From Zymoseptoria tritici IPO323 (taxonomy: Eukaryota > Ascomycota > Dothideomycetes > Mycosphaerellales > Mycosphaerellaceae), in contig NC_018215.1 of assembly GCF_000219625.1 (NCBI RefSeq), positions 2,170,001-2,234,000 of the forward strand: a stretch of 64,000 nucleotides of DNA, read 5' to 3'. Shown here in pieces: positions 46,516 through 57,669 of the stretch. Within the stretch, counting starts at the first letter, position 1. Every line of letters starts with the position of its first letter. The notes beneath the pieces were generated by a model, which saw only the letters and a program-made list of their open reading frames with translations, ran no database searches and was not told where the DNA came from. A program made the position numbers and the translations under genes.

Positions 46516-48765
46516 TCATTGAACCATACGAACACGACAGGCTTCCTCTCGATCGCTACGGCAGGCCAGCTGCCACTTGTCAATCTTGCTACGCTGATAG
46601 TCGTAATCGACCGCACTCAAGCTGTCGCTAATCTCAATCTCTCGGCACTCCCACTCAAGGATCTCACCGCGCTCTTCGCCTAGCGTCTCCGGATCCTCTA
46701 AGGAAGCCTCGGAAATGGCGTGCAGCCAGCTCTGAATTCGAGGATCCTCTGGGGGATTTCCATCCACAACAGGATCGCGTTCGTAGTACTCGATGTAGCC
46801 TCCGCCGCCATAGTAGCCTGCCGACTCTTCAGGCAACTCGACGCCCAGCTCCAACAATTTGGCTTCGGCCTCCTGGAGCACTTCCTCGGCCTTGATGACA
46901 TCCCTGGTGAGCTGGCGATTGATTGCGACCCAACGGAGATCGAATTCCGTTTGTGTAGCATCGTATGGTGCCTCACCATTCTCTTCCGCACGTGTACAAT
47001 TGTACAGATCGATATCTTCGTTGTCTGCCCTGGAGTCGAATTCCTGCCGCGCAGTTTCAAGAGACTTACGGGCTTCCCAGTGAGCAACTCTGGCCTTGTG
47101 CTCGGCCTCGTCTTCTGGTGAAGACACAGGCTGCGAGGTCGCCACGTCTTCCGCATCAGCTCCGTAGTGAGCGTCAGGTGTCAGTGGCTCGGGATCTGCG
47201 CGTGCAGTGCCGGCGTCTTGGTCTTGACTTTCTCGAGAATCCGCCAACAGATACTGCTTCGGAAGGCCCTTCTCCTCTGGAAACTGCTCGGCGCGCAAAC
47301 TCTGGTAGTCGTCCTCCAGGTTCAGACGCTCGGTCGGAAGCTCCTCTCCGCTGTCTGGTTCGCAAAGAAGGGCATGCACGAACGCTTCTTCGAGGAACGC
47401 CATGATTTCCGAGGTCTCTTCCAGAAGCACATTCGCACGGTGCCTGAGACGACTCTTTAGGACCTCTTTCTTCAAAGGCACCGACTTCAACAGAGTTTCG
47501 AGAATCGACAATTCGCTATCGCGCCAAGTAGGGCGTGCAGCGGTACTGGGCTCGGACGGGGCGTAGCGACGATCATTTATCTCGCGCCTCAGCTGAGAGT
47601 CGTACTGCTCGATTTCCTCAAGCTGCGCCTCGCCCCAACGCTTCTCTCGATCGTACATCCTCTGGTACTTGATGGCTGCTTTGATATACTGAGAAAGATC
47701 ATGTCGCATTAGAAGTGCCACGACTGGGGAGTGAAATCCATCTGTGGCAGAAATGAAACGTGCCGGGCCGGGAGTGTAGTCTTCGAGATCTTCGGGGAAT
47801 ATCCTGATGTAGTTGTCCCTTTGGGCTGGCTCATCTTCGATAGCAGCAGCATCTTGTTCGACGGATTGAGCATCGCCAACGAGATCCGCATGCTCAGCCT
47901 TTTGTCCTGCCGGCCATGGAGACTGCGGTGCCGCGACACCTTCCGCAACAGCTCCGTAATACTCGTCAGGTATCCGTGGCCCCGCGAGCTCCGCTGCATA
48001 CTCTGGGTCTGCATAGTCTTGATCTTGGATTCTCTGCAGACACTGCTCATCAATATCCAATTTTTCGATCGGAAGCTCCTCGTCATTGTCGAGATCAGCG
48101 AGAGTCGCCTCTACAAGTGCCTGGTCCAAGAATGCGCCGATTTCTGCGTAAGCCTTCAGTAGTATCTCCCCTCTGTACTTGAGTCCAGCTTCGAGGTTGC
48201 TCTTCTTTGCAGGCGCGACATTCAGCAAGCTTTCGAGTTCAAGCAGCCTCGACTTCCATTGAGCCTTAAGTTCAGGATTCTCCTCGTTCCGGATTGCTTT
48301 CTTGAGGACGGTGATCTCTTGCCACAATTTGGAATCGAACGCCTTGATCTCCTTTAGCTGCGCCTTGGCATACCTTTGCTCCTTGGAGTACAGCCTCTGG
48401 ATACGGACTGCTGTCTTCATGGACTCGCAGAGGTCGCTCTGCACCAAGAGCGTGAATGATGGATCGACGCCGTCTGTGGTGGCTATGGATCTGGCCGGGC
48501 AAGACGTACTGTCACGAGGCGATTGGTCAACTGTCGCAACATCATTGTGGTGAGATTTCGCTGTGAGGACATTGCGCGCCGCCTGCTTCTCAGCTACCGC
48601 AGCTTGGAGAATGCGGGTGGTACACGCTGCGAGGCAACGCTTGACGTAGGGAGCGCAATGCAAGACTGCAACTGGGACGATGGATGCCAGATCCATTTCG
48701 TGGTATGAGTTGGGGGCGAGTTCTGGAGGTTGGACTTGTAAGTTTGAGACGATGCCTCGTTGCAC
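46516..48765 (-). CDS. family A coiled-coil protein A1, internally duplicated
   Basis: Intronless, 749 residues; the ATG at 48696 (MDLASIV) is an alternative start. No named family recognised. It is a paralogue of three neighbouring minus-strand genes. Shared features are a block of the form A-T-D-G-(x)n-L-L-M-x3-L-S-x2-I-x2-A-I, helical coiled coil, and an EE-L-(P)-x-E-x-L-D/N segment. A C-terminal signature follows, beginning DLRWV..LTRDVI-AEE and ending EISDSLSAVDYD..RSKIDKWQ. The first two occur twice: residues about 91-295 (IATTDGVDPSFTLLVQSDL) and 335-557 (ISATDGFHSPVVALLMRHDL). The DNA of the halves is also similar, e.g. CAGCTCCGTA followed by CGTCAGGT in both. Highly acidic and without a signal peptide or membrane segment, it is probably cytosolic or nuclear. 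Confidence 0.75.
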   Translation of the reverse strand: MQRGIVSNLQVQPPELAPNSYHEMDLASIVPVAVLHCAPYVKRCLAACTTRILQAAVAEKQAARNVLTAKSHHNDVATVDQSPRDSTSCPARSIATTDGVDPSFTLLVQSDLCESMKTAVRIQRLYSKEQRYAKAQLKEIKAFDSKLWQEITVLKKAIRNEENPELKAQWKSRLLELESLLNVAPAKKSNLEAGLKYRGEILLKAYAEIGAFLDQALVEATLADLDNDEELPIEKLDIDEQCLQRIQDQDYADPEYAAELAGPRIPDEYYGAVAEGVAAPQSPWPAGQKAEHADLVGDAQSVEQDAAAIEDEPAQRDNYIRIFPEDLEDYTPGPARFISATDGFHSPVVALLMRHDLSQYIKAAIKYQRMYDREKRWGEAQLEEIEQYDSQLRREINDRRYAPSEPSTAARPTWRDSELSILETLLKSVPLKKEVLKSRLRHRANVLLEETSEIMAFLEEAFVHALLCEPDSGEELPTERLNLEDDYQSLRAEQFPEEKGLPKQYLLADSRESQDQDAGTARADPEPLTPDAHYGADAEDVATSQPVSSPEDEAEHKARVAHWEARKSLETARQEFDSRADNEDIDLYNCTRAEENGEAPYDATQTEFDLRWVAINRQLTRDVIKAEEVLQEAEAKLLELGVELPEESAGYYGGGGYIEYYERDPVVDGNPPEDPRIQSWLHAISEASLEDPETLGEERGEILEWECREIEISDSLSAVDYDYQRSKIDKWQLACRSDREEACRVRMVQ

Positions 48766-49438
48766 GAAGATCGCGGACTTCTACCTGAGGGAACTTGACA
48801 AAGGCGAATCTCAGATCCCGTGGTCTTTGTTTATCTTGATTGTCCGAGACAAAGCGAACAAAGCGCCTATTTGATTGTGTCGGTATTGTCTTGCGTGGCA
48901 TGAGACAGTCGTCAGCGACAATGGTGAATGCTGCTAATCTGGGACAGCAATCTCAGAATTCAAAGCTTATACTTAGACCCGAAGCGGCAAAGGTCCGTCG
49001 TGCCCTAGAAGGCGCAGCAGAACATTTCCGATTATTACTGTACTAGGACGGCGAGGCTATCTCCGGTTTAGCCCTTTCTACTTTAGAGTAGTGTTATAGT
49101 AAATCCTTACAAGAAAGCTCGAAATTGTGCACCTGCATATTAAATTCGAGCTTTCGGAAGGAGCGCACTAAGATAGAGGTAGCGGCGAGGCATTACGCGG
49201 ATTAGGGAAAGAACTTCGGATTTAACTCGCACTATCTACTATCTGCTATGCTAATCTAAAGCCTCTAATTTGTCTCGGAACACACATTATAAGACTGCTT
49301 CAAGTCTGACACCTATAGGCCCTAGCGCTGTAGCATGTGCTTTGGACATCAAACTCCGTCTATCGTTTTTGCGCAAGAAGCTTAAGAAAAGGAGAGCATG
49401 TCAGCATTCGAGATTCCGTCCAATACTGAATCGTCGGC
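48766..49438. other. spacer with a decayed AT-rich patch
   Basis: Between A1 start and A2 stop. 49040-49265 is distinctly AT-rich (TATAG, TACTATC and CTAATC words) and looks like a mutated remnant of a mobile or duplicated sequence. 49395-49438 still resembles the 75-bp repeat of A2 beyond its stop codon. No gene. Confidence 0.5.
49113..49155. repeat. 11-bp inverted repeat in an AT-rich patch
   Basis: GAAAGCTCGAA at 49113-49123 and TTCGAGCTTTC at 49145-49155 are perfect inverted copies around a 21-base loop. They could be the end or the core of a decayed MITE-like element. No target-site duplication could be made out. Confidence 0.5.
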
Positions 49439-50563
49439 TTAGGAGCCATCTTCCACCTCTGAAAGCACAGTTGAATCAGCGCTCAAAGCTGCATCCAAAG
49501 CTGGTCGGTCCGCTTGGGAGTCTTCACCCGCCTCCTGAAGCACTGGTACGTCAGCGTCCGAGGTTGAGTCTAATGCTGGTTCGTCGGCCCGATGGCCTTC
49601 CTCCACCGCTTCAAGCATACGAATACCAGCGTCCGAGGTTGCGTCCGATGTTGAAATATCGACTTGGGGCTCTTTCTCCGCCTTTCGAAGCCGCTGACAG
49701 AAAGCTGCGTACTCCGACTCGAAGTCCAACGGTTCTGTGCAGTAATCCGGGTCGTACCATACGCGCTCCACGAGATCAGCCTTGACAAAGGCCTTCTCCA
49801 TACATGCCTTCATGTCCCTGTCGCCTGTGTGCAAAGTCATGACCGCTTCATGGACAGTCTCCTCAACGCACCGCACTCGCCGCTTGACGTCTTCGTGTAG
49901 GAGGCACAGAATCCGCAGCTCCTGGAACAACTCTTCCCTCCCAGATTCCCCGTCCACCGATGCGGCATCCACATTCTTTCGATCCAGGCGATACTCAAGG
50001 CATCTGATTTTGCGATGTACAATGCGGCCCAGGCTCATGAGTTCTCCTCTATCCTCTTGCGCCTGTCCTTGTACCTCCTTGAACTCTCTTTCGGCCAGTA
50101 TCGCGGCTTTGATAAGTCCAGATAGCTGCACGGTCATCAGAAGCGCCGCACAGTCCTTGATTCCGTCATTTGCAGCCACGAATTGAGGTTGCCCTTCCGT
50201 GTAGTAGTCCGCGCAATCGCCTTTCAAGCTCACTCCGACACTGTCGCGGACTTGCTGCCTGTAAGTGAAGTCTCCCATTCCATAGCTCCAAAAATCGTCC
50301 TCCTCGTTTCGCTCTGCAAGATAGGCCGATTCACTGCCGTCGTTGGTGTCGTCTCCATACCCATCTGAGCAGCTTGCAGGATCCTCTTCCAGGGTCTGTG
50401 TGCCAGTGTCTCGATAAGTTGGCCGACGGATATCTGTATGCCGGGCTCCTGAATGGTTCGGTACATCGGTGCCGGGCTGGGACGTTTGTTGCAAGTTTGT
50501 TCCGAACGACGCTGTCCCCTGAAACCTGTTCAGAAAGGCCTTCACAGCAATTGCAACGTCCAT
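49439..50563 (-). CDS. family A coiled-coil protein A2, C-terminally truncated
   Basis: Intronless, 374 residues against about 512-516 for A3 and A4. The N-terminus (MDVAIAVKAFLNRFQ) closely matches A3 (MDVATMAFLNRFQ). The GTQT motif, FVAANDGIKDCAALLM and LSGLIKAAILAEREF are all present, as is the EPLDFESEYAAFCQRLR segment. The C-terminal half with the DLRWV helix and the ISDS..IDGWQ signature is missing. Instead the last 66 residues are two and a half copies of a 25-residue repeat (TSDAGIRMLEAVEEGHRADE and TSDADVPVLQEAGEDSQADR start the copies). The stop TAA stands where an aligned repeat copy has CAA, and repeat-like sequence continues beyond it. It may be a pseudogene or a shortened working paralogue. 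Confidence 0.65.
   Translation of the reverse strand: MDVAIAVKAFLNRFQGTASFGTNLQQTSQPGTDVPNHSGARHTDIRRPTYRDTGTQTLEEDPASCSDGYGDDTNDGSESAYLAERNEEDDFWSYGMGDFTYRQQVRDSVGVSLKGDCADYYTEGQPQFVAANDGIKDCAALLMTVQLSGLIKAAILAEREFKEVQGQAQEDRGELMSLGRIVHRKIRCLEYRLDRKNVDAASVDGESGREELFQELRILCLLHEDVKRRVRCVEETVHEAVMTLHTGDRDMKACMEKAFVKADLVERVWYDPDYCTEPLDFESEYAAFCQRLRKAEKEPQVDISTSDATSDAGIRMLEAVEEGHRADEPALDSTSDADVPVLQEAGEDSQADRPALDAALSADSTVLSEVEDGS
49442..49639 (-). repeat. 75-bp tandem repeat in the A2 3' end
   Basis: Two full 75-bp units plus a partial third encode 25-residue repeats rich in Asp, Glu, Ser and Ala. A further eroded copy continues past the stop to about 49395. Confidence 0.75.
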
Positions 50564-51395
50564 TGGAAGATGTAGTTCGGTAAGGTGTCGCTGTTCGTTT
50601 TGTTATGAGATGGTGGTGCCGGGAAAAATAAGGGCGAGGTTGCTGAACTTTTATGAGGTCTTTTCGGCGGTTGTAGTTTGCTGCAGCAGACAGTTCCCTT
50701 TGACTTGTCAATTGCCTTTATACCAGCACATGTCTCTGCTGTCTCATGGTTGTCTAGGGACATGAGTCAAAAGTCTTTGGTGGAGAGCTTCCTTTTCCAT
50801 GGGCAGTCTTTGTTGCTCGTCCGATGACTTAGAACGTCATCTCCGCATGAGACAAATCAGTCAGGATGCCACAAATGAAGCACCAAGTGGCGGTGATGCG
50901 AGACAAGATCGCAGTTGGCTCGGTCGAAGTCTTTCGCAACACAAAGACATTGGTTGCTATCTCTATGAAGTATGAGTCTTGAAGCCCCTGAACGACCGCA
51001 ATCTGGAAATTTGGAGAAGGGATGGACGAAGATGCCGTTCACTAAGCATACAATGCCAAGTCCCTCGGTAACGTTTGAGACAGACTGCTTCATATTCGAC
51101 AGATACAGCTGGCTTCATACGGCCTGAGATGGTGTTTCCTTGTATCCATATTGGGAAGATGCGATAGCCCCTTGGATCAGGCACTGAGCGCTCGGTAGAT
51201 CAATGTCATCGATCGACATGAAAGACAATAAGCGGCAGCGAACGTACTGGTGTTACAGCAGACATATGGTCAACGCTTACAGGTGAATGATCGTTGTACC
51301 CGCCAGCGCGATGGTCGCAATCCTGAATGTCAGATGAATCAACGTTGTATATACATGTTTTCGGCTGAGCCGCTAAGATCAGCAGCTTGATTTCT
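50564..51395. other. spacer upstream of A2
   Basis: About 0.8 kb. By analogy with A3 and A4 a plus-strand B partner would be expected here, but no B signature (SKRRM, DMFCLP) is found in any frame. Minus-strand frames around 50857-51184 (e.g. YRIFPIWIQGNTISGRMK) read like parts of a decayed gene in two frames, without a join I can support. Confidence 0.45.
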
Positions 51396-52934
51396 TCATT
51401 CTTCATTGTACCGGCGGCAGTCCTGCTGCCATCCATCAATCTTCCTCCGATCCACTCCGTATGCTACAAGACTGATACTATCACATATCTCAACGTCTCG
51501 CGCTTCCCAATCGTCGACGTCCGCGCTGCTAGCAGTCTCAGATGACACCTCTTCGTCAACGCCACTCAGCCATCCACTGATATTCTCCATCCGGGCAGGT
51601 ACAATCAGCTCGTCCCCAATACTCATGCGGTCGCCGCTTCCTTCAGTCTCTGCAAATCCCGACGACTGATATTCGAGCGTAACGTTGAGGCCAGCTTCTC
51701 TTGCAGCCGTCTTTGCGATTGCGAGACCCTCCTCAGCATCGATCACTTCGCGTGTCAACTCAGAGATATGCTGTACCCAGCGAAGATCAAAGACTTGCTC
51801 GTCTTCGTCCGTCCTCTGCCGATCCTCGTGTCGCGCCATTCCGCGCTTATCGAAGTAAAAAGTGGCATTTTGCAGGCGCTCTTGGGCGTCAAAAAAGGCA
51901 CTCTTCAAATCGGCCTCGGCCTGCTCCTCTGGCCCAAGAACTTGCGGAGGTACCCGCAGGTAAGTGTCGCCGGTGACGTTCAATGCTGCCACACTACTTG
52001 CTTGAGAGCCTTCTTCCATCTCTCGGAGCTGCTCACAAAATGCTTGATATTCTTGCTTGAGATCGAGAGGCTCAACATCGATGTCCGGCGCCTGCTCTTC
52101 CGGCCAAACGAGTTCTGCGGCAGTGAAAGCGTCTTCGAGACATTCGGTCAGCGCTCTCGTACAGTTATGTAGCAACATAGCTTCAGTCTCCACTTGAGCA
52201 GCAGCCCTTTGTTTGCGTTGTCCAACATCTGCAAGCAGTAATCGAAGGTTCTCCAACTCCTTGACAGACGCCGCAGAGACTGCTTCATCCGTTGCCGAGG
52301 CCACCGCAGCCGTCTCTAAATCATCAACCTGGTCTTGGTCAAGGCGATACTCATGAGCTCGAATCTCCCTCTTCACCGCAGACTCAAGTCTCATCAGCTC
52401 TATCCTGGTGTCGGTCTCATGTCGCTCTGCTCGGACAAACTGTCGCTCCGCATATATTGCTTGCTGAATGAGTCCAGACAGCTCTAGATTCATCAGAAGT
52501 GCAGGACAGTCATCTTTAAGCCCATCGGTGGCCAGAACCAGGCGTAAGGGCCCTGCAGTGTAGTCCTCTTCAACTTCGTCATGAATTCTCACATACCGCT
52601 CTTCACGGACGCTTTGCTCGTCGATGTATTCGGAGTGATTCTCGCCTCCGCACTCCTCATCAAACGTCTCGCCTGGAGCTTCGTCGGGTGACGATTCAAG
52701 CACTCGCTCAGTCTCGTCCAGATGGTCGTCATTAGGGTTCAGGATGCTCTCGTCGATTGTCTGCGTGCCGCTGTCCTGGTAAATCGGTCGGTCGGCACAA
52801 TGACACGTGCGATCCGTAGCTGTGAATGGCCGTGTCGCTTCTGTCTTCGTTGCGCACGGCAGTTGACGAGATGCAGCGCCGAATATGGTTGCCCACTGAA
52901 ACCTGTTCAGAAAAGCCATTGTTGCGACATCCAT
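51396..52934 (-). CDS. family A coiled-coil protein A3
   Basis: Intronless, 512 residues from the ATG at 52934. An in-frame ATG at 52994 would add 20 residues, but the N-terminus from 52934 aligns with A2. Features in order are MDVATMAFLNRFQ; DSGTQTIDE; DYTAGPLRLVLATDGLKDD followed by LLMNLELSGLIQQAIYAER; a long coiled coil with Ala/Glu heptads; EPLDLKQEYQAFCEQLREM; an alpha-helical segment DLRWVQHISELTREVIDAEE; and a C-terminal signature WEARDVEICDSISLVAYG..RRKIDGWQQDC. It is acidic, with no signal peptide or membrane segment. Function unknown. Head to head with B1, 434 bases between starts. Confidence 0.78.
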   Translation of the reverse strand: MDVATMAFLNRFQWATIFGAASRQLPCATKTEATRPFTATDRTCHCADRPIYQDSGTQTIDESILNPNDDHLDETERVLESSPDEAPGETFDEECGGENHSEYIDEQSVREERYVRIHDEVEEDYTAGPLRLVLATDGLKDDCPALLMNLELSGLIQQAIYAERQFVRAERHETDTRIELMRLESAVKREIRAHEYRLDQDQVDDLETAAVASATDEAVSAASVKELENLRLLLADVGQRKQRAAAQVETEAMLLHNCTRALTECLEDAFTAAELVWPEEQAPDIDVEPLDLKQEYQAFCEQLREMEEGSQASSVAALNVTGDTYLRVPPQVLGPEEQAEADLKSAFFDAQERLQNATFYFDKRGMARHEDRQRTDEDEQVFDLRWVQHISELTREVIDAEEGLAIAKTAAREAGLNVTLEYQSSGFAETEGSGDRMSIGDELIVPARMENISGWLSGVDEEVSSETASSADVDDWEARDVEICDSISLVAYGVDRRKIDGWQQDCRRYNEE

Positions 52935-53368
52935 CGCTGAATTGTTGTGGTGATGCAGAAGACTTTGAAAGATGCAAGAGAAGAAGGACCCCAAGGGCTG
53001 ATGGCTATTAGTTGGCTTCCTTTGACCCTTTGTTTGTTAAATTCGATCCATCTTCACGGACGGATCATACGCTTGTATCTTTGTGAGAGACGGATGACCG
53101 AGACATCGGCCTTCTTTGTCGTCCATTCACGGGATCACTTCATTCCCACATCAATGCGTGAATGCGACGGCGCTCTCCGTGAATAAAGCCCAGGGAGGAG
53201 ACAATGTCAGTCGACAGCATGACAGCAGGTAGATAACCAGACGCTTACCTTTTGTGAAATACCAAAGCACTCAACTTTCCATCCATTGATCATTCTCCAC
53301 TCCACATCCTCGGACCAGCAAAGTACCCGCTCTATTACTCTCCACATCTCAGGAAGATCCTGGAGACC
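52935..53368. promoter_or_regulatory. shared divergent promoter region of A3 and B1
   Basis: 434 bases between the two outward starts. TTCATTCCC at 53139-53147 also occurs in the A4/B2 promoter region at 56507-56515. Otherwise the two regions show no clear alignment by eye. Confidence 0.5.
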
Positions 53369-54292
53369 ATGGTTCTTCTGGGGACCGCAAAGAAAGGTAC
53401 CTCGTCGGTCGCCTCAGCCATGACAACCCCAACTACACCAAAAGCGTCCGGTTTCTCCGGAACAGCAGGAGCAGCAGGAACAACGGGCGCTCAGAGTCCT
53501 TGGAAGACCGTCGCAAGACCGAATGTCGCTCCACCAGATATGCGCAAATCGGTCTTGAAAGCAATGCCTTCGCACGTTGGCGGACTGTCGATGGTATCCC
53601 AAATGCGAGGCCTGAGCGTCAACAACTCCTTACTGCATCCCGGAGCTGCGAATCCTAATGTCCACAATCCGTCCCTCGGTCCCTTGCCGCCGACAGGTAC
53701 TCAGTGGGGCGGCACTGCTGTCCAGACCGACATGACGACAGATACTTACTTCAAGCCTGTCAAAACACCCGAATGTGTCAGGACCAAACGCACCGTGCGA
53801 GACTTCAAGAGCGGAGAAGTCCTTGCTCTTCCGTTCCACGTCGCAAACATGAATCCGAAACTGGTACCAAATCATCCGCGCCTGCAGATAACATGCGAGG
53901 GACCCGCCTTCAGCAAGCGTCGAATGTTCATCGTCCTTTGGATCAACCAGATCGACATGTTTTGCTTGCCGCTGTACTCTTTCGAAGGAAAAGGCCTGGC
54001 CGCAAAGAAGGACTATCTGAAAGCTGACTATGTTTGTTTGGCAAACAAAGAGGCAGGCCGCTCGTTCAAGAACGTGGGACTGTACAAGCCTGTTGTGTTC
54101 GAATCGTACGACCGGAAGCCATTGACGGATGAGACGACGGTACATCTGACAGGAGGCGTTACGGTCGATCCGAGGGAGCATATCACATATGTCGGGCGGC
54201 TGACCAAAGACTCGCATGCTCATTTGCTACAGTTGTGGCAAGATCGAGTTGACATTGCGCAAGACAAAGCCTGGGTACCGACTCGGAGGTGA
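53369..54292 (+). CDS. family B protein B1 (DUF6590-like)
   Basis: Intronless, 307 residues. The first 130 residues are Ala/Thr/Gly/Pro-rich and probably disordered. From about residue 135 there is an ordered domain: FKSGEVLALPFHVANMN, FSKRRMFIVLWINQIDMFCL, PLYSFEGKGLAAK, VHLTGGVTVDPREHITYVGR and a final helix HLLQLWQDRVDIAQ. The order of these blocks (F-x2-G-x-V; S-K-R-R-x-hydrophobic strand; C-L-P-x2-[ST]-[YF]; G-x-G; a V-R/T-x3 strand; G-R/V at the end) recalls the fungal DUF6590 domain. That comparison is from memory and needs a profile search. B2 shares the same domain. No signal peptide or membrane segment. Role unknown; it is divergently paired with A3. Confidence 0.75.
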   Translation: MVLLGTAKKGTSSVASAMTTPTTPKASGFSGTAGAAGTTGAQSPWKTVARPNVAPPDMRKSVLKAMPSHVGGLSMVSQMRGLSVNNSLLHPGAANPNVHNPSLGPLPPTGTQWGGTAVQTDMTTDTYFKPVKTPECVRTKRTVRDFKSGEVLALPFHVANMNPKLVPNHPRLQITCEGPAFSKRRMFIVLWINQIDMFCLPLYSFEGKGLAAKKDYLKADYVCLANKEAGRSFKNVGLYKPVVFESYDRKPLTDETTVHLTGGVTVDPREHITYVGRLTKDSHAHLLQLWQDRVDIAQDKAWVPTRR

Positions 54293-54716
54293 CGCGTCAA
54301 TGCTTAAGTCTTCCATGTGGAGCCTGAGGGATATCTGTTGTTTGGCCTGGCGCCAGGCATCGTCTGCTAGAAGCGTTGTGTCTTGAAGATTCGGTTCGCG
54401 CAGATATCAAGTATCAAAATTCATCTTGACCAATCTCTTATCTGACGAAGAGGCATCATACGAAGTTCTGTGGATGCACGGAGAGCGTCGAGAATGGGTC
54501 GAAAAAGATGATGATGAGGTAAAGTAAAGGAAAGGAAAGGTAACGATGTGGTGCGGTGAAATTTGACTTCTTGAAACATGATACCTTAGTCAGCCACACA
54601 CAAACGGATGCGTATGAAGTGATAACGAGTGGAGGACGGCAAACACTATTCGCTTTCGCAGGTGAATAGACAGCTGGCTCGCAACATCTAGCAGGCAGTC
54701 GTACTCAAATTGTGCT
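54293..54716. other. intergenic, convergent 3' ends of B1 and A4
   Basis: Contains a short AAAGG-type run near 54526-54541 (AAAGTAAAGGAAAGGAAAGG). Nothing else seen. Confidence 0.55.
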
Positions 54717-56267
54717 CTAGGTACGACAAACTTGCTGCCACTTGTCTATCCTCCTGCGATCAGAGCCTTGAGCAACCATACTGAGACTATCGCTCATGCC
54801 CGCCTCGCTATAATCCCAATCGTCAACCTCAGCAGCCCCCATGAATTCCGCATCACCAGCCTCGACCAAAGAATCAAACCAATCCAGAACTCGGGGCTCC
54901 GCGGCAACGTGCTCAGATGTGTCGGGGTCGCCGCTCCTGAAAGGGCCATCGGGACCGTCGTCTGCATCATCAGCAAAGCACGAGGACTGCCGATCGTCTT
55001 CGCATGGGAGACCTGCTTCCCGGGCCGCGATCTTTGCCTGCTCAACGGCGTCCTCCGCCTCTATCAGCTCTCGAGTCATGTCGGTAATGCACTTCACCCA
55101 TCTGCAGTCGAAATCTTCGTTACTGACATCGAGAGTCGGTTGTCCTGCCTCTTCGAGTTCGATGTTCTGCTGGTACTCGTCCCGCCGTATCTCATCCCTG
55201 GCGTGGAATCGATTTTGAGCTTGTTGCAATCGCTCCCTTGCGTGCCACAGATCTGTACTCGCCTGAAGCATGGCCTCCTGAGCTGGTGTCTGGACCGGTT
55301 TGTTGGCACGCAAATGGTCGTCGCTGGTGTCCAATGTTTGGCGTGCCGGAGGGCCCCCATTGATCTCCTCCATTTGATCTCGGAGTGTTTGGTACTCCTC
55401 TTGCAGGTCGTATTCGGGCACTGGCTCGGGTGATGCACCAGCATCAGGCTCGCTCAATTGCGCATAGACAAAGGCGTCTTCCAAGTATGCGCTCACTGCC
55501 GCTTGGGCAGCAGCCAAACCGTCGGCTCGGGCGCTCAGATTCAGCTCGATGTTGGTCTTCACAGCAGTCATGTTCTCTGACAGCAATTCGAGCATTTCCA
55601 GCTCTTGTCGTAGTGAGCTGATCTTGTCGAACTTTTCTTCGTCAGAGACCGATTGACGAGCCTCTTCGGACGCTATGCGAGACTGGTGCTTGACCTTTGC
55701 TGTACGCAATTCGGACGAGAACTTCTTGACCGCCTCGCTCCTTGCCTTTGCGCGGACTTTCTCTGCTTCAAATTCCCTTTTCGACATGATCACCTTCTGA
55801 ATCTTTGCTGAGAGGTCCGATGATATGGTGAGAGCGATACATGGTTTGACACCATCATGCGCCTCAATCAGGCAGCCAGGTCCGTCTGTGTAAGCGTCTG
55901 GGATCTCCTCCTCGAAGACCAACATGACGGACTGGCGTGCTGCCTCTTCCTCCCACTCGCTAAGGCCCGAGTGACCGGGGTCGGTCTGGTCGTGCGGAGT
56001 TCCATCTGATTCCTCGGTATTTGTGCCTCTATCGATGAATTGGGTCTGATCCCGCGAAGGTTCTGCTTCTGATTGTCGTTCTTCATCTGACTCTTCTGTA
56101 TACGAGCGTCCGTCCTCAGAATCACGTTGGTGGCGCGGAGAATCTGCTTCCGACTGTGGATGCAGTAGAAGAGGACTGTCTGCGCCTAGAAGAGAGTTGT
56201 CCACGCTCCTCCACGTCTCGATCAGTGGAGTTTTGAAGTCCGCCCAGAAATTAAGCAGGGCTTCCAT
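54717..56267 (-). CDS. family A coiled-coil protein A4
   Basis: Intronless, 516 residues. The N-terminus (MEALLNFWADFKTPLIETWR) differs from A2/A3, but later blocks are shared: DRGTNTEES (the GTQT block), DAYTDGPGCLIEAHDGVKPC followed by LTISSDLSAKIQKVIMSKRE, a strong coiled coil (AEKVRAKARSEAVKKFSSEL), EYDLQEEYQTLRDQMEEI, and DCRWVKCITDMTRELIEAED. It ends with the signature DYSEAGMSDSLSMVAQG..RRRIDKWQQVC. Of the four copies this one carries the full domain set with the most divergent sequence. Function unknown. Head to head with B2, 406 bases between starts, the same arrangement as A3/B1. Confidence 0.78.
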   Translation of the reverse strand: MEALLNFWADFKTPLIETWRSVDNSLLGADSPLLLHPQSEADSPRHQRDSEDGRSYTEESDEERQSEAEPSRDQTQFIDRGTNTEESDGTPHDQTDPGHSGLSEWEEEAARQSVMLVFEEEIPDAYTDGPGCLIEAHDGVKPCIALTISSDLSAKIQKVIMSKREFEAEKVRAKARSEAVKKFSSELRTAKVKHQSRIASEEARQSVSDEEKFDKISSLRQELEMLELLSENMTAVKTNIELNLSARADGLAAAQAAVSAYLEDAFVYAQLSEPDAGASPEPVPEYDLQEEYQTLRDQMEEINGGPPARQTLDTSDDHLRANKPVQTPAQEAMLQASTDLWHARERLQQAQNRFHARDEIRRDEYQQNIELEEAGQPTLDVSNEDFDCRWVKCITDMTRELIEAEDAVEQAKIAAREAGLPCEDDRQSSCFADDADDGPDGPFRSGDPDTSEHVAAEPRVLDWFDSLVEAGDAEFMGAAEVDDWDYSEAGMSDSLSMVAQGSDRRRIDKWQQVCRT

Positions 56268-56673
56268 CGTTAGGAATCTGTATTGCGCCTGTTGGAAAAG
56301 GAAGTTAGATCGAGTCGACGTTGGTGAATATTGCGCTTAGTGAACAGTACAATGCAATGATGTGTTGATCTGAAGAAGACTTACGATGTTCGCCGGAATT
56401 AGACGGCTCATTGTGCCAATTTGTTGTTCTGGGTCAAAGAGGCAATTCCTGCGTTGAGATGAGACCAAGTGAAATTGCGAGGTCTCTGCACAAAGACAAC
56501 AAAGGATTCATTCCCCGATGCGGCGGCCACTGTCATCACCCTTTCGATCAACTGATTGTCGAGCAGTTGATATGGAATAATGATTTGATCGTGTTACCTC
56601 CTGTGCAAACCTTCATTCCAAACCCGAATATCGAAGGTTCAACTTCTTACCAAATCATCACCACGAAATCAGA
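56268..56673. promoter_or_regulatory. shared divergent promoter region of A4 and B2
   Basis: 406 bases between the outward starts, nearly the same spacing as the A3/B1 pair. TTCATTCCC at 56507-56515 is shared with that pair. Confidence 0.5.
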
Positions 56674-57669
56674 ATGTCTCGCAATTTTCCTCCTAATCCG
56701 AATCGCAACCCAGGACGTGCATTTGGTAGGGGCGGACTTGGTTATGGACAACGCAATGTCAGGTCGACCATGGCAACTCCATCCCTGGCAGCAATCGGTG
56801 AACAGACAATCGATAGCAATCCGCAACAGCCCCAGCAGCCCCAGCAACCCCAGCAAACCCAGCAAACCCAGCAATCAACGACCAGATGGGAGAATTCGAG
56901 GCTTCCAAGTACTGCCGCAGGCACTTCAAGAGCGGGCGCCGCTATGAACGCCGGGTTCGGTCGAATGAATCTTCAGAACATATCGCCCATGGATCCTTCA
57001 AATGCGCCAAATCGTGCAGCCATGAATCAAGACTGGCGAGCAGCAGCTGCAGCACCTACTCAAGCAGCACCCAGCCAAGCGGCACCAAGCCAAGCGGCAC
57101 CAAGTCAAGCAAGCACAAGACGCGGAGCGGCAAGAAGACAGCAAGACGGCTGGATCGACACCGAGGATTGCGTCCGCTCTGCTTATACAAAAGAGGCATT
57201 CACCAAGGGCGAGATAATATCGCTCCCTTTTCATGTTCCGAACACCAACAAAGACGTGCAACCGAACGATGTGGCGCTGACAAGAACGGCCGAAGGTCCG
57301 GTGTATAGCAAACGTCGCATGGCCGTCGTGCTTTGGAAACACAAGACTGACATGTTCTGCTTACCATTCTTTAGCTTCGGTGCCAGAGGAATCACCGCAA
57401 AGCCCGTCCAATTGCGAGACGAGTATGTGGAGATCACGAACCAAGGCGAAGGCGCTTCTCATCGCACCGAGGGTGTACGCAAGGTACTCGAAGCCGCCAT
57501 GGTTAACACTTTGAAGACCAAGAACGGCGTGGTGCACATCACCGGCGGGTTCAGAGTATCCTACCAAGACGACATTGCCAAACTCGGCAGGTTGACAGAT
57601 GAAAGCAGAGCGAGGCTCACCGAGATGTGGATTGAGCTCAACAATACGGCCCAGGCAGAACTGTATTGA
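56674..57669 (+). CDS. family B protein B2 (DUF6590-like)
   Basis: Intronless, 331 residues. The N-terminal 160 residues are low complexity: an RG-containing start (GRAFGRGGLGYGQRN), a Pro-Gln-Gln run encoded by a CAGCCC-type repeat at about 56824-56875, and four PSQAA/PTQAA units at about 57055-57110. The ordered domain follows: FTKGEIISLPFHVPNTN, YSKRRMAVVLWKHKTDMFCL, PFFSFGARGITAK, VVHITGGFRVSYQDDIAKLG and the end helix RLTEMWIELNN. These blocks align with B1 without large gaps, while the N-termini do not align, so the domain is the conserved part. It lies head to head with A4. Confidence 0.75.
   Translation: MSRNFPPNPNRNPGRAFGRGGLGYGQRNVRSTMATPSLAAIGEQTIDSNPQQPQQPQQPQQTQQTQQSTTRWENSRLPSTAAGTSRAGAAMNAGFGRMNLQNISPMDPSNAPNRAAMNQDWRAAAAAPTQAAPSQAAPSQAAPSQASTRRGAARRQQDGWIDTEDCVRSAYTKEAFTKGEIISLPFHVPNTNKDVQPNDVALTRTAEGPVYSKRRMAVVLWKHKTDMFCLPFFSFGARGITAKPVQLRDEYVEITNQGEGASHRTEGVRKVLEAAMVNTLKTKNGVVHITGGFRVSYQDDIAKLGRLTDESRARLTEMWIELNNTAQAELY

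What the first reader, a model, noticed from the sequence alone, without database searches (positions are those of the whole stretch)
46516..57669. Undescribed clustered gene system: four family A coiled-coil genes with two divergently paired family B genes
Within 11 kb, four minus-strand paralogues (A1-A4) share the blocks [YT]-x-G-P-x5-A-x-D-G, L-L-M-x3-L-S-x2-I-x2-A-I, a D-x-R-W-V helix and an ISDS-x-[SL]..R-x-I-D-x-WQ end. Two plus-strand paralogues (B1, B2) share a DUF6590-like domain. A3/B1 and A4/B2 are head-to-head with 434 and 406 bases between starts. The repeated arrangement indicates duplication of a two-gene module as a unit, which usually means the two products act together under one promoter. 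I know of no described function for either family.
Basis: partly seen in the sequence, partly recalled or inferred. Interest (0 to 1): 0.88.

Follow-up and report, generated by a model that had tools for sequence, protein, structure and literature searches.

The report
Paired fungal genes, one MazF-shaped
A wheat-leaf fungus carries several copies of a two-gene unit, one gene for a coiled-coil protein and one for a protein predicted to fold like a bacterial RNA-cutting toxin, and one copy differs so much between strains that it may help the fungus tell self from non-self.

Summary
The window lies in Zymoseptoria tritici. Families A and B are real. Eight A genes or pieces and five B genes were found at three loci, and all five B genes lie head-to-head with an A gene, 380-513 bp apart. 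A2 lacks the C-terminal blocks.

Best reading: a two-gene incompatibility-type module in which coiled-coil A restrains or reads out MazF-fold B. Pairing and fold are well supported. RNase activity, A-B binding and self/non-self function are inferred. Confidence in the full mechanism is about 0.37.

The parts
46516..48765 (-). A1, 749 aa from GTG (726 aa from the first ATG, codon 24); family A with an internal duplication of the first helical domain; no adjacent B gene
49439..50563 (-). A2, 374 aa; family A cut short: first helical hairpin only, no second hairpin or C-terminal motif
51396..52934 (-). A3, 512 aa; family A member of the A3/B1 module; 64%, 58% and 53% identical to copies in Z. tritici 1A5, Z. 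tritici 3D1 and a metagenome
52119..52487 (-). A3 residues 150-272: predicted first long helical hairpin; 39-71% identical per 30-residue block among the IPO323, 1A5 and 3D1 copies
51696..51932 (-). A3 residues 335-413: predicted second helical hairpin with the FDLRWV...LTREVIDAE block
51426..51488 (-). A3 residues 483-503: conserved C-terminal motif (DSxSxVA.G..RRKIDGWQ) at the end of an acidic disordered stretch
52935..53368 (.). 434-bp shared intergenic stretch between the starts of A3 and B1
53369..54292 (+). B1, 307 aa; disordered N-terminal part plus DUF6590 domain
53786..54265 (+). B1 residues 140-299: predicted MazF/PemK-like fold; Arg185 (codon 53921-53923) and Ser204 (codon 53978-53980) are the conserved candidate active-site pair
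54717..56267 (-). A4, 516 aa; family A member of the A4/B2 module; 98% identical in Z. tritici 1E4 and 94% in Z. brevis
56268..56673 (.). 406-bp shared intergenic stretch between the starts of A4 and B2
56674..57669 (+). B2, 331 aa; disordered-looking Q/A-rich N-terminal part (9-bp and 15-bp tandem repeats) plus DUF6590 domain (residues 174-259 matched)

Best explanation
The unit is a two-gene module inherited as a block. B is a MazF/PemK-fold protein (DUF6590) that keeps an Arg and a Ser/Thr where MazF has its catalytic pair, so it is plausibly an RNA-binding or RNA-cutting protein able to stop growth or kill the cell. A is a coiled-coil protein, apparently not secreted, made from the opposite strand of the same intergenic region, which binds B and keeps it in check or reads out its state. 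A4/B2 and the unlinked copies look like old fixed paralogues (shown for A4 only). The A3/B1 copy exists as very different variants within one species, in which A and B have diverged together. The most likely reason is self/non-self recognition of the fungal vegetative-incompatibility type: partners from one haplotype fit, and an unlike A and B brought together by cell fusion (or in a cross) release B and damage the mixed cell. Shown: families, head-to-head pairing, synteny by locus tag, predicted fold, conserved residues, and high divergence of A3/B1 beside conserved A4. Inferred: A-B binding, RNase activity, balancing selection, and the incompatibility role.
Against: MazF-B profile comparison is not significant (P 0.12 at best of four runs), and no B protein hits Pfam PemK_toxin. 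No Foldseek E-value is below 0.001, and the stretch just before and around Arg185 is the less certain part of the model. By simple sequence register the conserved Ser lies one residue past MazF's Thr, and no residue-level superposition was available. B4 has no Pfam hit and is not found by a B1 profile; it is tied to the family through B5. The A model is weak (pTM 0.34) and no A-B complex was modelled. Z. tritici B1 copies forming one clade is not rejected (p-AU 0.14), so trans-species polymorphism is not shown. Allelic position of the 3D1 and 1A5 copies is inferred from protein records only. Z. tritici has 665 highly variable regions ascribed to introgression (PMC6836716), so strong local divergence is not unique to recognition loci. 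No Pfam domain of the HET, NACHT or HeLo kind was hit in any of the 13 A and B proteins scanned.
Confidence: 0.37

Rival explanations
1. A and B form an ordinary intracellular complex (for example RNA- or protein-binding) with a housekeeping or regulatory role. The A3/B1 copy simply evolves fast, or carries introgressed or hypervariable sequence, and plays no part in recognition.
For: Z. tritici has many highly variable regions ascribed to hybridisation (665 regions; PMC6836716, abstract, one section and passages). A4 is stable. A MazF-like barrel can bind without cutting. Disordered parts account for some of the divergence.
Against: 36-42% protein difference between strains of one species (A3 and B1) far exceeds the 6% difference of the neighbouring A4 from Z. 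brevis, and the 3D1 copy of B1 is only 61% identical to that of Z. brevis, so introgression from Z. brevis would not produce it; an unsampled source is not excluded. The divergence includes the folded parts of A3 and B1. A and B are divergent together in 3D1.
Confidence: 0.33
2. The module is a selfish toxin-antidote (spore-killer or drive type). B poisons spores that do not inherit the module, and A from the same haplotype protects.
For: MazF-like fold with conserved Arg and Ser/Thr, tight head-to-head linkage of two genes, tandem and dispersed copies, truncated or broken A copies (A2, A5b).
Against: 1E4 has an IPO323-like B1, and 3D1 and Z. brevis have diverged copies, which fits diversity of variants better than presence/absence; but absence of a module cannot be seen with protein searches. 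Modules or their members are retained in Z. brevis and Cercospora.
Confidence: 0.12
3. The strain differences are not allelic. An ancestral tandem array held several A3/B1-like modules, and strains kept different ones.
For: Arrays do vary: two modules plus extra A genes here, two modules on C10, one plus a broken A on C4 at 1.27 Mb. Positions in 1A5 and 3D1 are known only through contig lengths.
Against: In Z. brevis the diverged B1 homologue is next by locus tag to the A4 orthologue, the same position as B1.
Confidence: 0.12
4. A is the executioner and B the sensor: A's N-terminal helix and helical hairpins attack membranes, as HeLo-type proteins do, and MazF-fold B only binds and holds A.
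For: The first 30 residues of A3 are better kept than the next 30 (23, 17 and 15 of 30 against 8, 8 and 6 of 30 in the three strain comparisons), and a helix is predicted at residues 3-19.
Against: That helix has low confidence (block means 42-55) and no fold match is significant. The residues conserved in B would then be unexplained.
Confidence: 0.06

Closest known systems
Podospora anserina het-B (Bh/Bp), a two-gene vegetative-incompatibility locus
   Same: Two different adjacent genes, each existing as highly diverged variants (about 60-70% identical products) within one species; clustering kept in related taxa (28 of 31).
   Different: Bh has a HET domain and a lectin fold and Bp is PII-like; here a coiled-coil protein and a DUF6590/MazF-fold protein. 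het-B is proven genetically; here only sequence evidence exists. Orientation varies at het-B; here it is head-to-head in five of five.
Bacterial MazEF/PemIK toxin-antitoxin modules
   Same: One partner has the MazF fold (predicted) with an Arg and a Ser/Thr kept at or near the catalytic positions; two adjacent genes.
   Different: No significant sequence similarity to MazF; large eukaryotic proteins; the partner is a 500-aa coiled coil, not a small MazE/AbrB-type antitoxin; divergent genes instead of an operon; toxicity and RNase activity untested.
Pfam PF20233 (DUF6590)
   Same: B1, B2, B3 and B5 score above the curated cut-off.
   Different: They are a diverged branch (27.8-40.9 bits, against 156 bits for a canonical member in the same genome) that is tied to A genes; the canonical members on C3 are not. 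B4 has no Pfam hit.
Z. tritici highly variable regions (Feurtey et al. 2019, PMC6836716)
   Same: Short stretches of extreme divergence between strains next to conserved sequence.
   Different: Those are ascribed to introgression from sister species. Here the difference between strains exceeds the divergence of the neighbouring gene from Z. brevis about six-fold. Whether this locus is on that list could not be checked.

Membership tests
DUF6590 (PF20233) | score above the curated cut-off of 27 bits | tested here: met
   B1 27.8, B2 32.2, B3 40.9, B5 35.4 bits; not met for B4, which has no Pfam hit
MazF/PemK toxin family | MazF/PemK-like fold | tested here: met
MazF/PemK toxin family | significant sequence match to the PemK_toxin profile (PF02452) or to a MazF profile | tested here: not met
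   no PF02452 hit in this genome although 3 of 14 control genomes ring; none among 33 B-type proteins; hhalign P 0.12 at best
MazF/PemK toxin family | catalytic Arg and Thr/Ser | tested here: inconclusive
   Arg185 in 38 of 38 and Ser/Thr204 in 38 of 38, but residue correspondence is by register, one residue off for the Ser
MazF/PemK toxin family | sequence-specific RNase activity neutralised by the partner | not testable with these tools
   needs expression and an RNA-cleavage assay
Fungal vegetative-incompatibility (het/vic) locus | highly diverged variants within one species | tested here: met
   A3 58-64% (two strains) and B1 64% (one strain; 99-100% in another) identical to IPO323; allelic position inferred, not read from DNA
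Fungal vegetative-incompatibility (het/vic) locus | trans-species polymorphism | tested here: inconclusive
   strain-to-strain and species-to-species distances are similar and the tree is a polytomy, but one clade of Z. tritici copies is not rejected, p-AU 0.14
Fungal vegetative-incompatibility (het/vic) locus | balanced allele frequencies | not testable with these tools
   I had no population genomes of this species
Fungal vegetative-incompatibility (het/vic) locus | cell death or barrage when unlike variants meet | not testable with these tools
   needs strain confrontation and gene deletion
Toxin-antidote meiotic driver | biased transmission or spore death in crosses | not testable with these tools
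   needs crosses

The most novel reading that the evidence does not exclude
Fungi have turned a MazF-type RNA-cutting fold into a self/non-self system: DUF6590 proteins are eukaryotic MazF relatives, some paired head-to-head with a coiled-coil inhibitor, and hyperdivergent pairs such as A3/B1 kill or arrest fused cells when partners do not match. This would be a new executioner type beside HET/TIR, HeLo, gasdermin and patatin.
Probability: 0.2. Interest if true: 0.9.

Novelty: new variant of a known kind. Interest (0 to 1): 0.68.

Why it matters
DUF6590 is named in no paper of the library searched. A predicted MazF-like fold with a kept Arg and Ser/Thr gives the family a first testable biochemical hypothesis. 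Two searches for incompatibility in Zymoseptoria (15 of 35 papers listed; 19 of 19) and passages of four of those papers showed annotated HET-domain genes but no functionally identified incompatibility locus of Z. tritici. A two-gene locus that differs by about 40% between strains while its neighbour stays 98% identical is a concrete candidate, testable with existing strain genomes and simple deletions. If the RNase reading holds, it would link a bacterial toxin fold to fungal self/non-self recognition.

Tried and rejected
Head-to-head coiled-coil gene beside a canonical DUF6590 gene on C3 (L029:1554-3155) as a distant A: it looked similar by eye, but hhalign gives probability 0.1% and the A profile scores it -13.1 bits, below several of its own shuffles; dropped. 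The L028 neighbours on C3 likewise score no better than their shuffles.

Rows dropped from the census: weak hits at C2:2849669 (E 0.026), C5:1003574 (0.038, one stop) and C5:357070 (1.8) for A, and C5:1227992 for B4 (8.4e-4, disordered N-terminal part only, three stops). None was followed further, except that the C5:1.00-Mb region was scanned with the A and B profiles without a hit.

Shared promoter element in the five A-B intergenic stretches: none beyond shuffles. MazF sequence homology: not significant. The A model against PDB: no significant match, best E 0.036 to an F-BAR domain; absence of a match shows nothing. PADLOC: no hit for five proteins tested. B profile against PDB sequences: only a chance hit, E 0.43. 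In the leave-out test the B1 profile found B2, B5 and B3 but not B4, its best shuffle had E 0.22, and the B4/B5 profile found no other B. The secreted-effector reading was set aside because the A and B N-termini show no signal-peptide-like stretch (by eye only; no predictor was run).

Non-monophyly of Z. tritici B1 variants was tested and is not significant, so I do not claim trans-species polymorphism. Both A searches scored only the roughly 8,000 candidates sharing most words, and one search did not even return the A4 proteins, so absence of further A homologues means nothing. Literature: DUF6590 0 papers; PF20233 0 papers; MazF with fungal terms, 42 papers of which 15 were listed, none on this by title and abstract start; MazF/PemK with fungal incompatibility terms, 252 papers of which 15 were listed, none of the 15 holding MazF or PemK. 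A 2025 review of fungal cell death has 0 occurrences of ribonuclease, RNase, MazF or toxin-antitoxin (PMC12881547, term search only). Subscription journals are mostly missing and preprints are not held.
Full report
WHERE IT IS. The window is positions 2,170,001-2,234,000 of contig C4 of a 39.69-Mb, 21-contig genome. Near-identical proteins are recorded from Zymoseptoria tritici ST99CH_1E4 (98-99%), so the organism is Z. tritici. That it is the reference IPO323 is my inference from genome size and 21 contigs; PMC6836716 says IPO323 has 21 fully assembled chromosomes (passage).

THE OBSERVATION. All six ORFs exist at the stated places and are open without introns. Starts of A3, A4 and B1 are backed by homologues that begin at the same residue or nearby. 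The family A relationship is not a coiled-coil artefact. A profile of A3 plus four close homologues finds A4, A1, A2, A5, A6 and A7 with E from 4e-67 to 2e-10, while none of 650 block-shuffled controls was listed at E <= 100 for any of four A profiles. The smaller A4 profile missed A7, and the C10 profile missed A1 and A2. Unrelated coiled-coil proteins of the window score -20 and -45 bits against an A profile. The block list is too generous: A2 has only the first helical block, and literal ISDS occurs only in A1. A1 has a duplicated first helical domain.

CENSUS. Searches of the genome with A3, A5, A6, B1, B4 and B5 and with the DUF6590 family, and profile scans of the fetched regions, give A at three places: A1-A4 here; A5 plus a broken copy, A5b, at C4:1.267-1.269 Mb; A6 and A7 at C10:0.350-0.356 Mb. 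They give five B genes: B1 and B2 here, B3 beside A5, B4 beside A6, B5 beside A7. Five of five B genes are head-to-head with an A gene, with 434, 406, 513, 490 and 380 bp between starts. B4 is the weakest member: no Pfam hit, not found by a B1 profile, linked through B5 at E 4e-6. A1, A2 and A5b have no B. Two further, canonical DUF6590 genes on C3 (158-160 bits) have no detectable A neighbour within the 9.9 kb fetched around each. Partners diverged in step: A3-A4 31% and B1-B2 31%; A6-A7 28% and B4-B5 24%. In the family trees the C10 genes pair with each other for both A (support 100/100) and B (80/87), with long-branch warnings. The genome tool counts only its best candidates, so this census is a lower bound.

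RELATIVES. Z. brevis has an A4 orthologue (94%) and a B1 homologue with consecutive locus tags on one contig length. C. beticola has A at CB0940_00181 and B at CB0940_00184. C. zeae-maydis has two B genes two tags apart. I could read no DNA for these, so orientation there is unknown.

WHAT A IS. No Pfam family passes its cut-off and none of PADLOC matches (A3 and A4 tested). The model of A3 (13 sequences; pTM 0.34) shows a small beta hairpin (131-147), two long helical hairpins (150-208/214-272 and 335-374/379-413), disordered flanks, an acidic C-terminal stretch and a C-terminal helix that carries the conserved RRKIDGWQ. Foldseek gives no significant match. Among the IPO323, 1A5 and 3D1 copies the C-terminal block (481-510) is best kept (26-29 of 30), the first block is 15-23 of 30, residues 31-90 are most variable (6-13 of 30 per block), and the first hairpin is 39-71% per block.

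STRAIN DIVERGENCE. A3 against Z. tritici 1A5 64%, against 3D1 58%, 1A5 against 3D1 57%. B1 against 1E4 99-100%, against 3D1 64%, against Z. brevis 68%; 3D1 against Z. brevis 61%. A4 against 1E4 98% and against Z. brevis 94%. Z. tritici nucleotide diversity is given as about 0.014 (PMC6836716, passage), and six gene rows seen in a 3D7-3D1 table list 96.5-99.9% (PMC10700024, passage, kind of identity not seen), so 36-42% protein difference is extreme. On trees the B1 distance between IPO323 and 3D1 (about 0.56, 0.65) is like that between IPO323 and Z. brevis (0.56 and 0.52), while A4 of IPO323 and Z. brevis differ by about 0.06. The Z. tritici B1 variants forming one clade is not rejected (p-AU 0.14), so I claim old or fast divergence, not proven trans-species polymorphism. 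Only proteins in public records were available: two other strains for A3 (1A5, 3D1), two other strains plus Z. brevis for B1 (1E4, 3D1), and one other strain plus Z. brevis for A4. B2, A1 and A2 of other strains were not searched for on their own (protein searches capped at three).

HOW IT MAY WORK. Tight linkage of two unlike genes, co-divergence, and a highly diverged pair beside a conserved neighbour are what described incompatibility loci look like. At Podospora het-B, two adjacent genes have allele products about 60-70% identical, linkage is kept in 28 of 31 taxa with both genes, and recognition is between unlike gene products (PMC10890737: abstract, two sections and passages). In A. fumigatus the divergence around het genes extends only several hundred bp (PMC11138114, passages). 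Z. tritici does fuse cells, with cytoplasm mixing (PMC7477884, passages), and incompatibility between strains is expected but no locus is named in the passages read (PMC10101009); other papers mention annotated HET-domain genes (PMC10700024, PMC5082898, passages). I therefore favour a recognition module in which coiled-coil A restrains or reads out MazF-fold B, and rank an ordinary fast-evolving complex, toxin-antidote drive, non-allelic copies and an A-executioner version below it. Step probabilities as I judge them: families and pairing 0.99; A and B act together 0.8; MazF-like fold 0.9; B a nuclease 0.35; A3/B1 differences allelic 0.8; balancing selection 0.55; recognition role 0.37.

NOVELTY. 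The kind of system (linked, diverged gene pairs) is known; these proteins are not among those described in what I read. I found no paper on DUF6590 or PF20233 and none tying MazF-like folds to fungal recognition in the searches named (listings capped at 15). Membership in the MazF family is not claimed, because the sequence test was not met.

Noticed in passing
window:49439-50563: A2 ends inside an acidic repeat-like stretch (by eye) and lacks the second hairpin and C-terminal motif; either a cut-short working copy or a decaying gene.
   Followed up: partly
L017:3772-4756 (G000:C4 about 1.2668-1.2678 Mb): Two overlapping frames each match family A (40 bits each), i.e. a broken second A copy beside A5/B3; a 41-residue part is 70% identical to A5.
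   Followed up: partly
L029:1554-3155 and L029:3853-5661 (G000:C3 about 3.43 Mb): A canonical DUF6590 gene is also head-to-head with a long coiled-coil ORF that is not detectably related to family A; perhaps the pairing theme is wider than the A family.
   Followed up: partly
L028:2251-5678 (G000:C3 about 1.53 Mb): The other canonical DUF6590 gene lies among small unnamed ORFs; one minus-strand ORF begins MEVAGVVLGAIPVCLL, a start that I recall from fungal NLR/kinase-type proteins (recalled; no Pfam hit).
   Followed up: no
window:28210-32945: Two abutting minus-strand ORFs (920 and 656 aa), coiled coil and rich in SQ by eye; the second has a sub-threshold Cep57 centrosome-domain match (6.3e-5). 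Possibly one large gene.
   Followed up: no
window:59938-61152: HhH-GPD base-excision DNA glycosylase with a long Lys/Glu-rich repetitive tail.
   Followed up: no
window:56830-57116: In-frame 9-bp and 15-bp tandem repeats in the N-terminal part of B2, possibly length-variable between strains.
   Followed up: no
A3 against P0037 (1A5), residues 121-150 and 301-330: Blocks nearly identical (27 of 30 and 29 of 30) between otherwise 64% identical A3 copies, suggesting exchange between variants or strong local constraint.
   Followed up: partly
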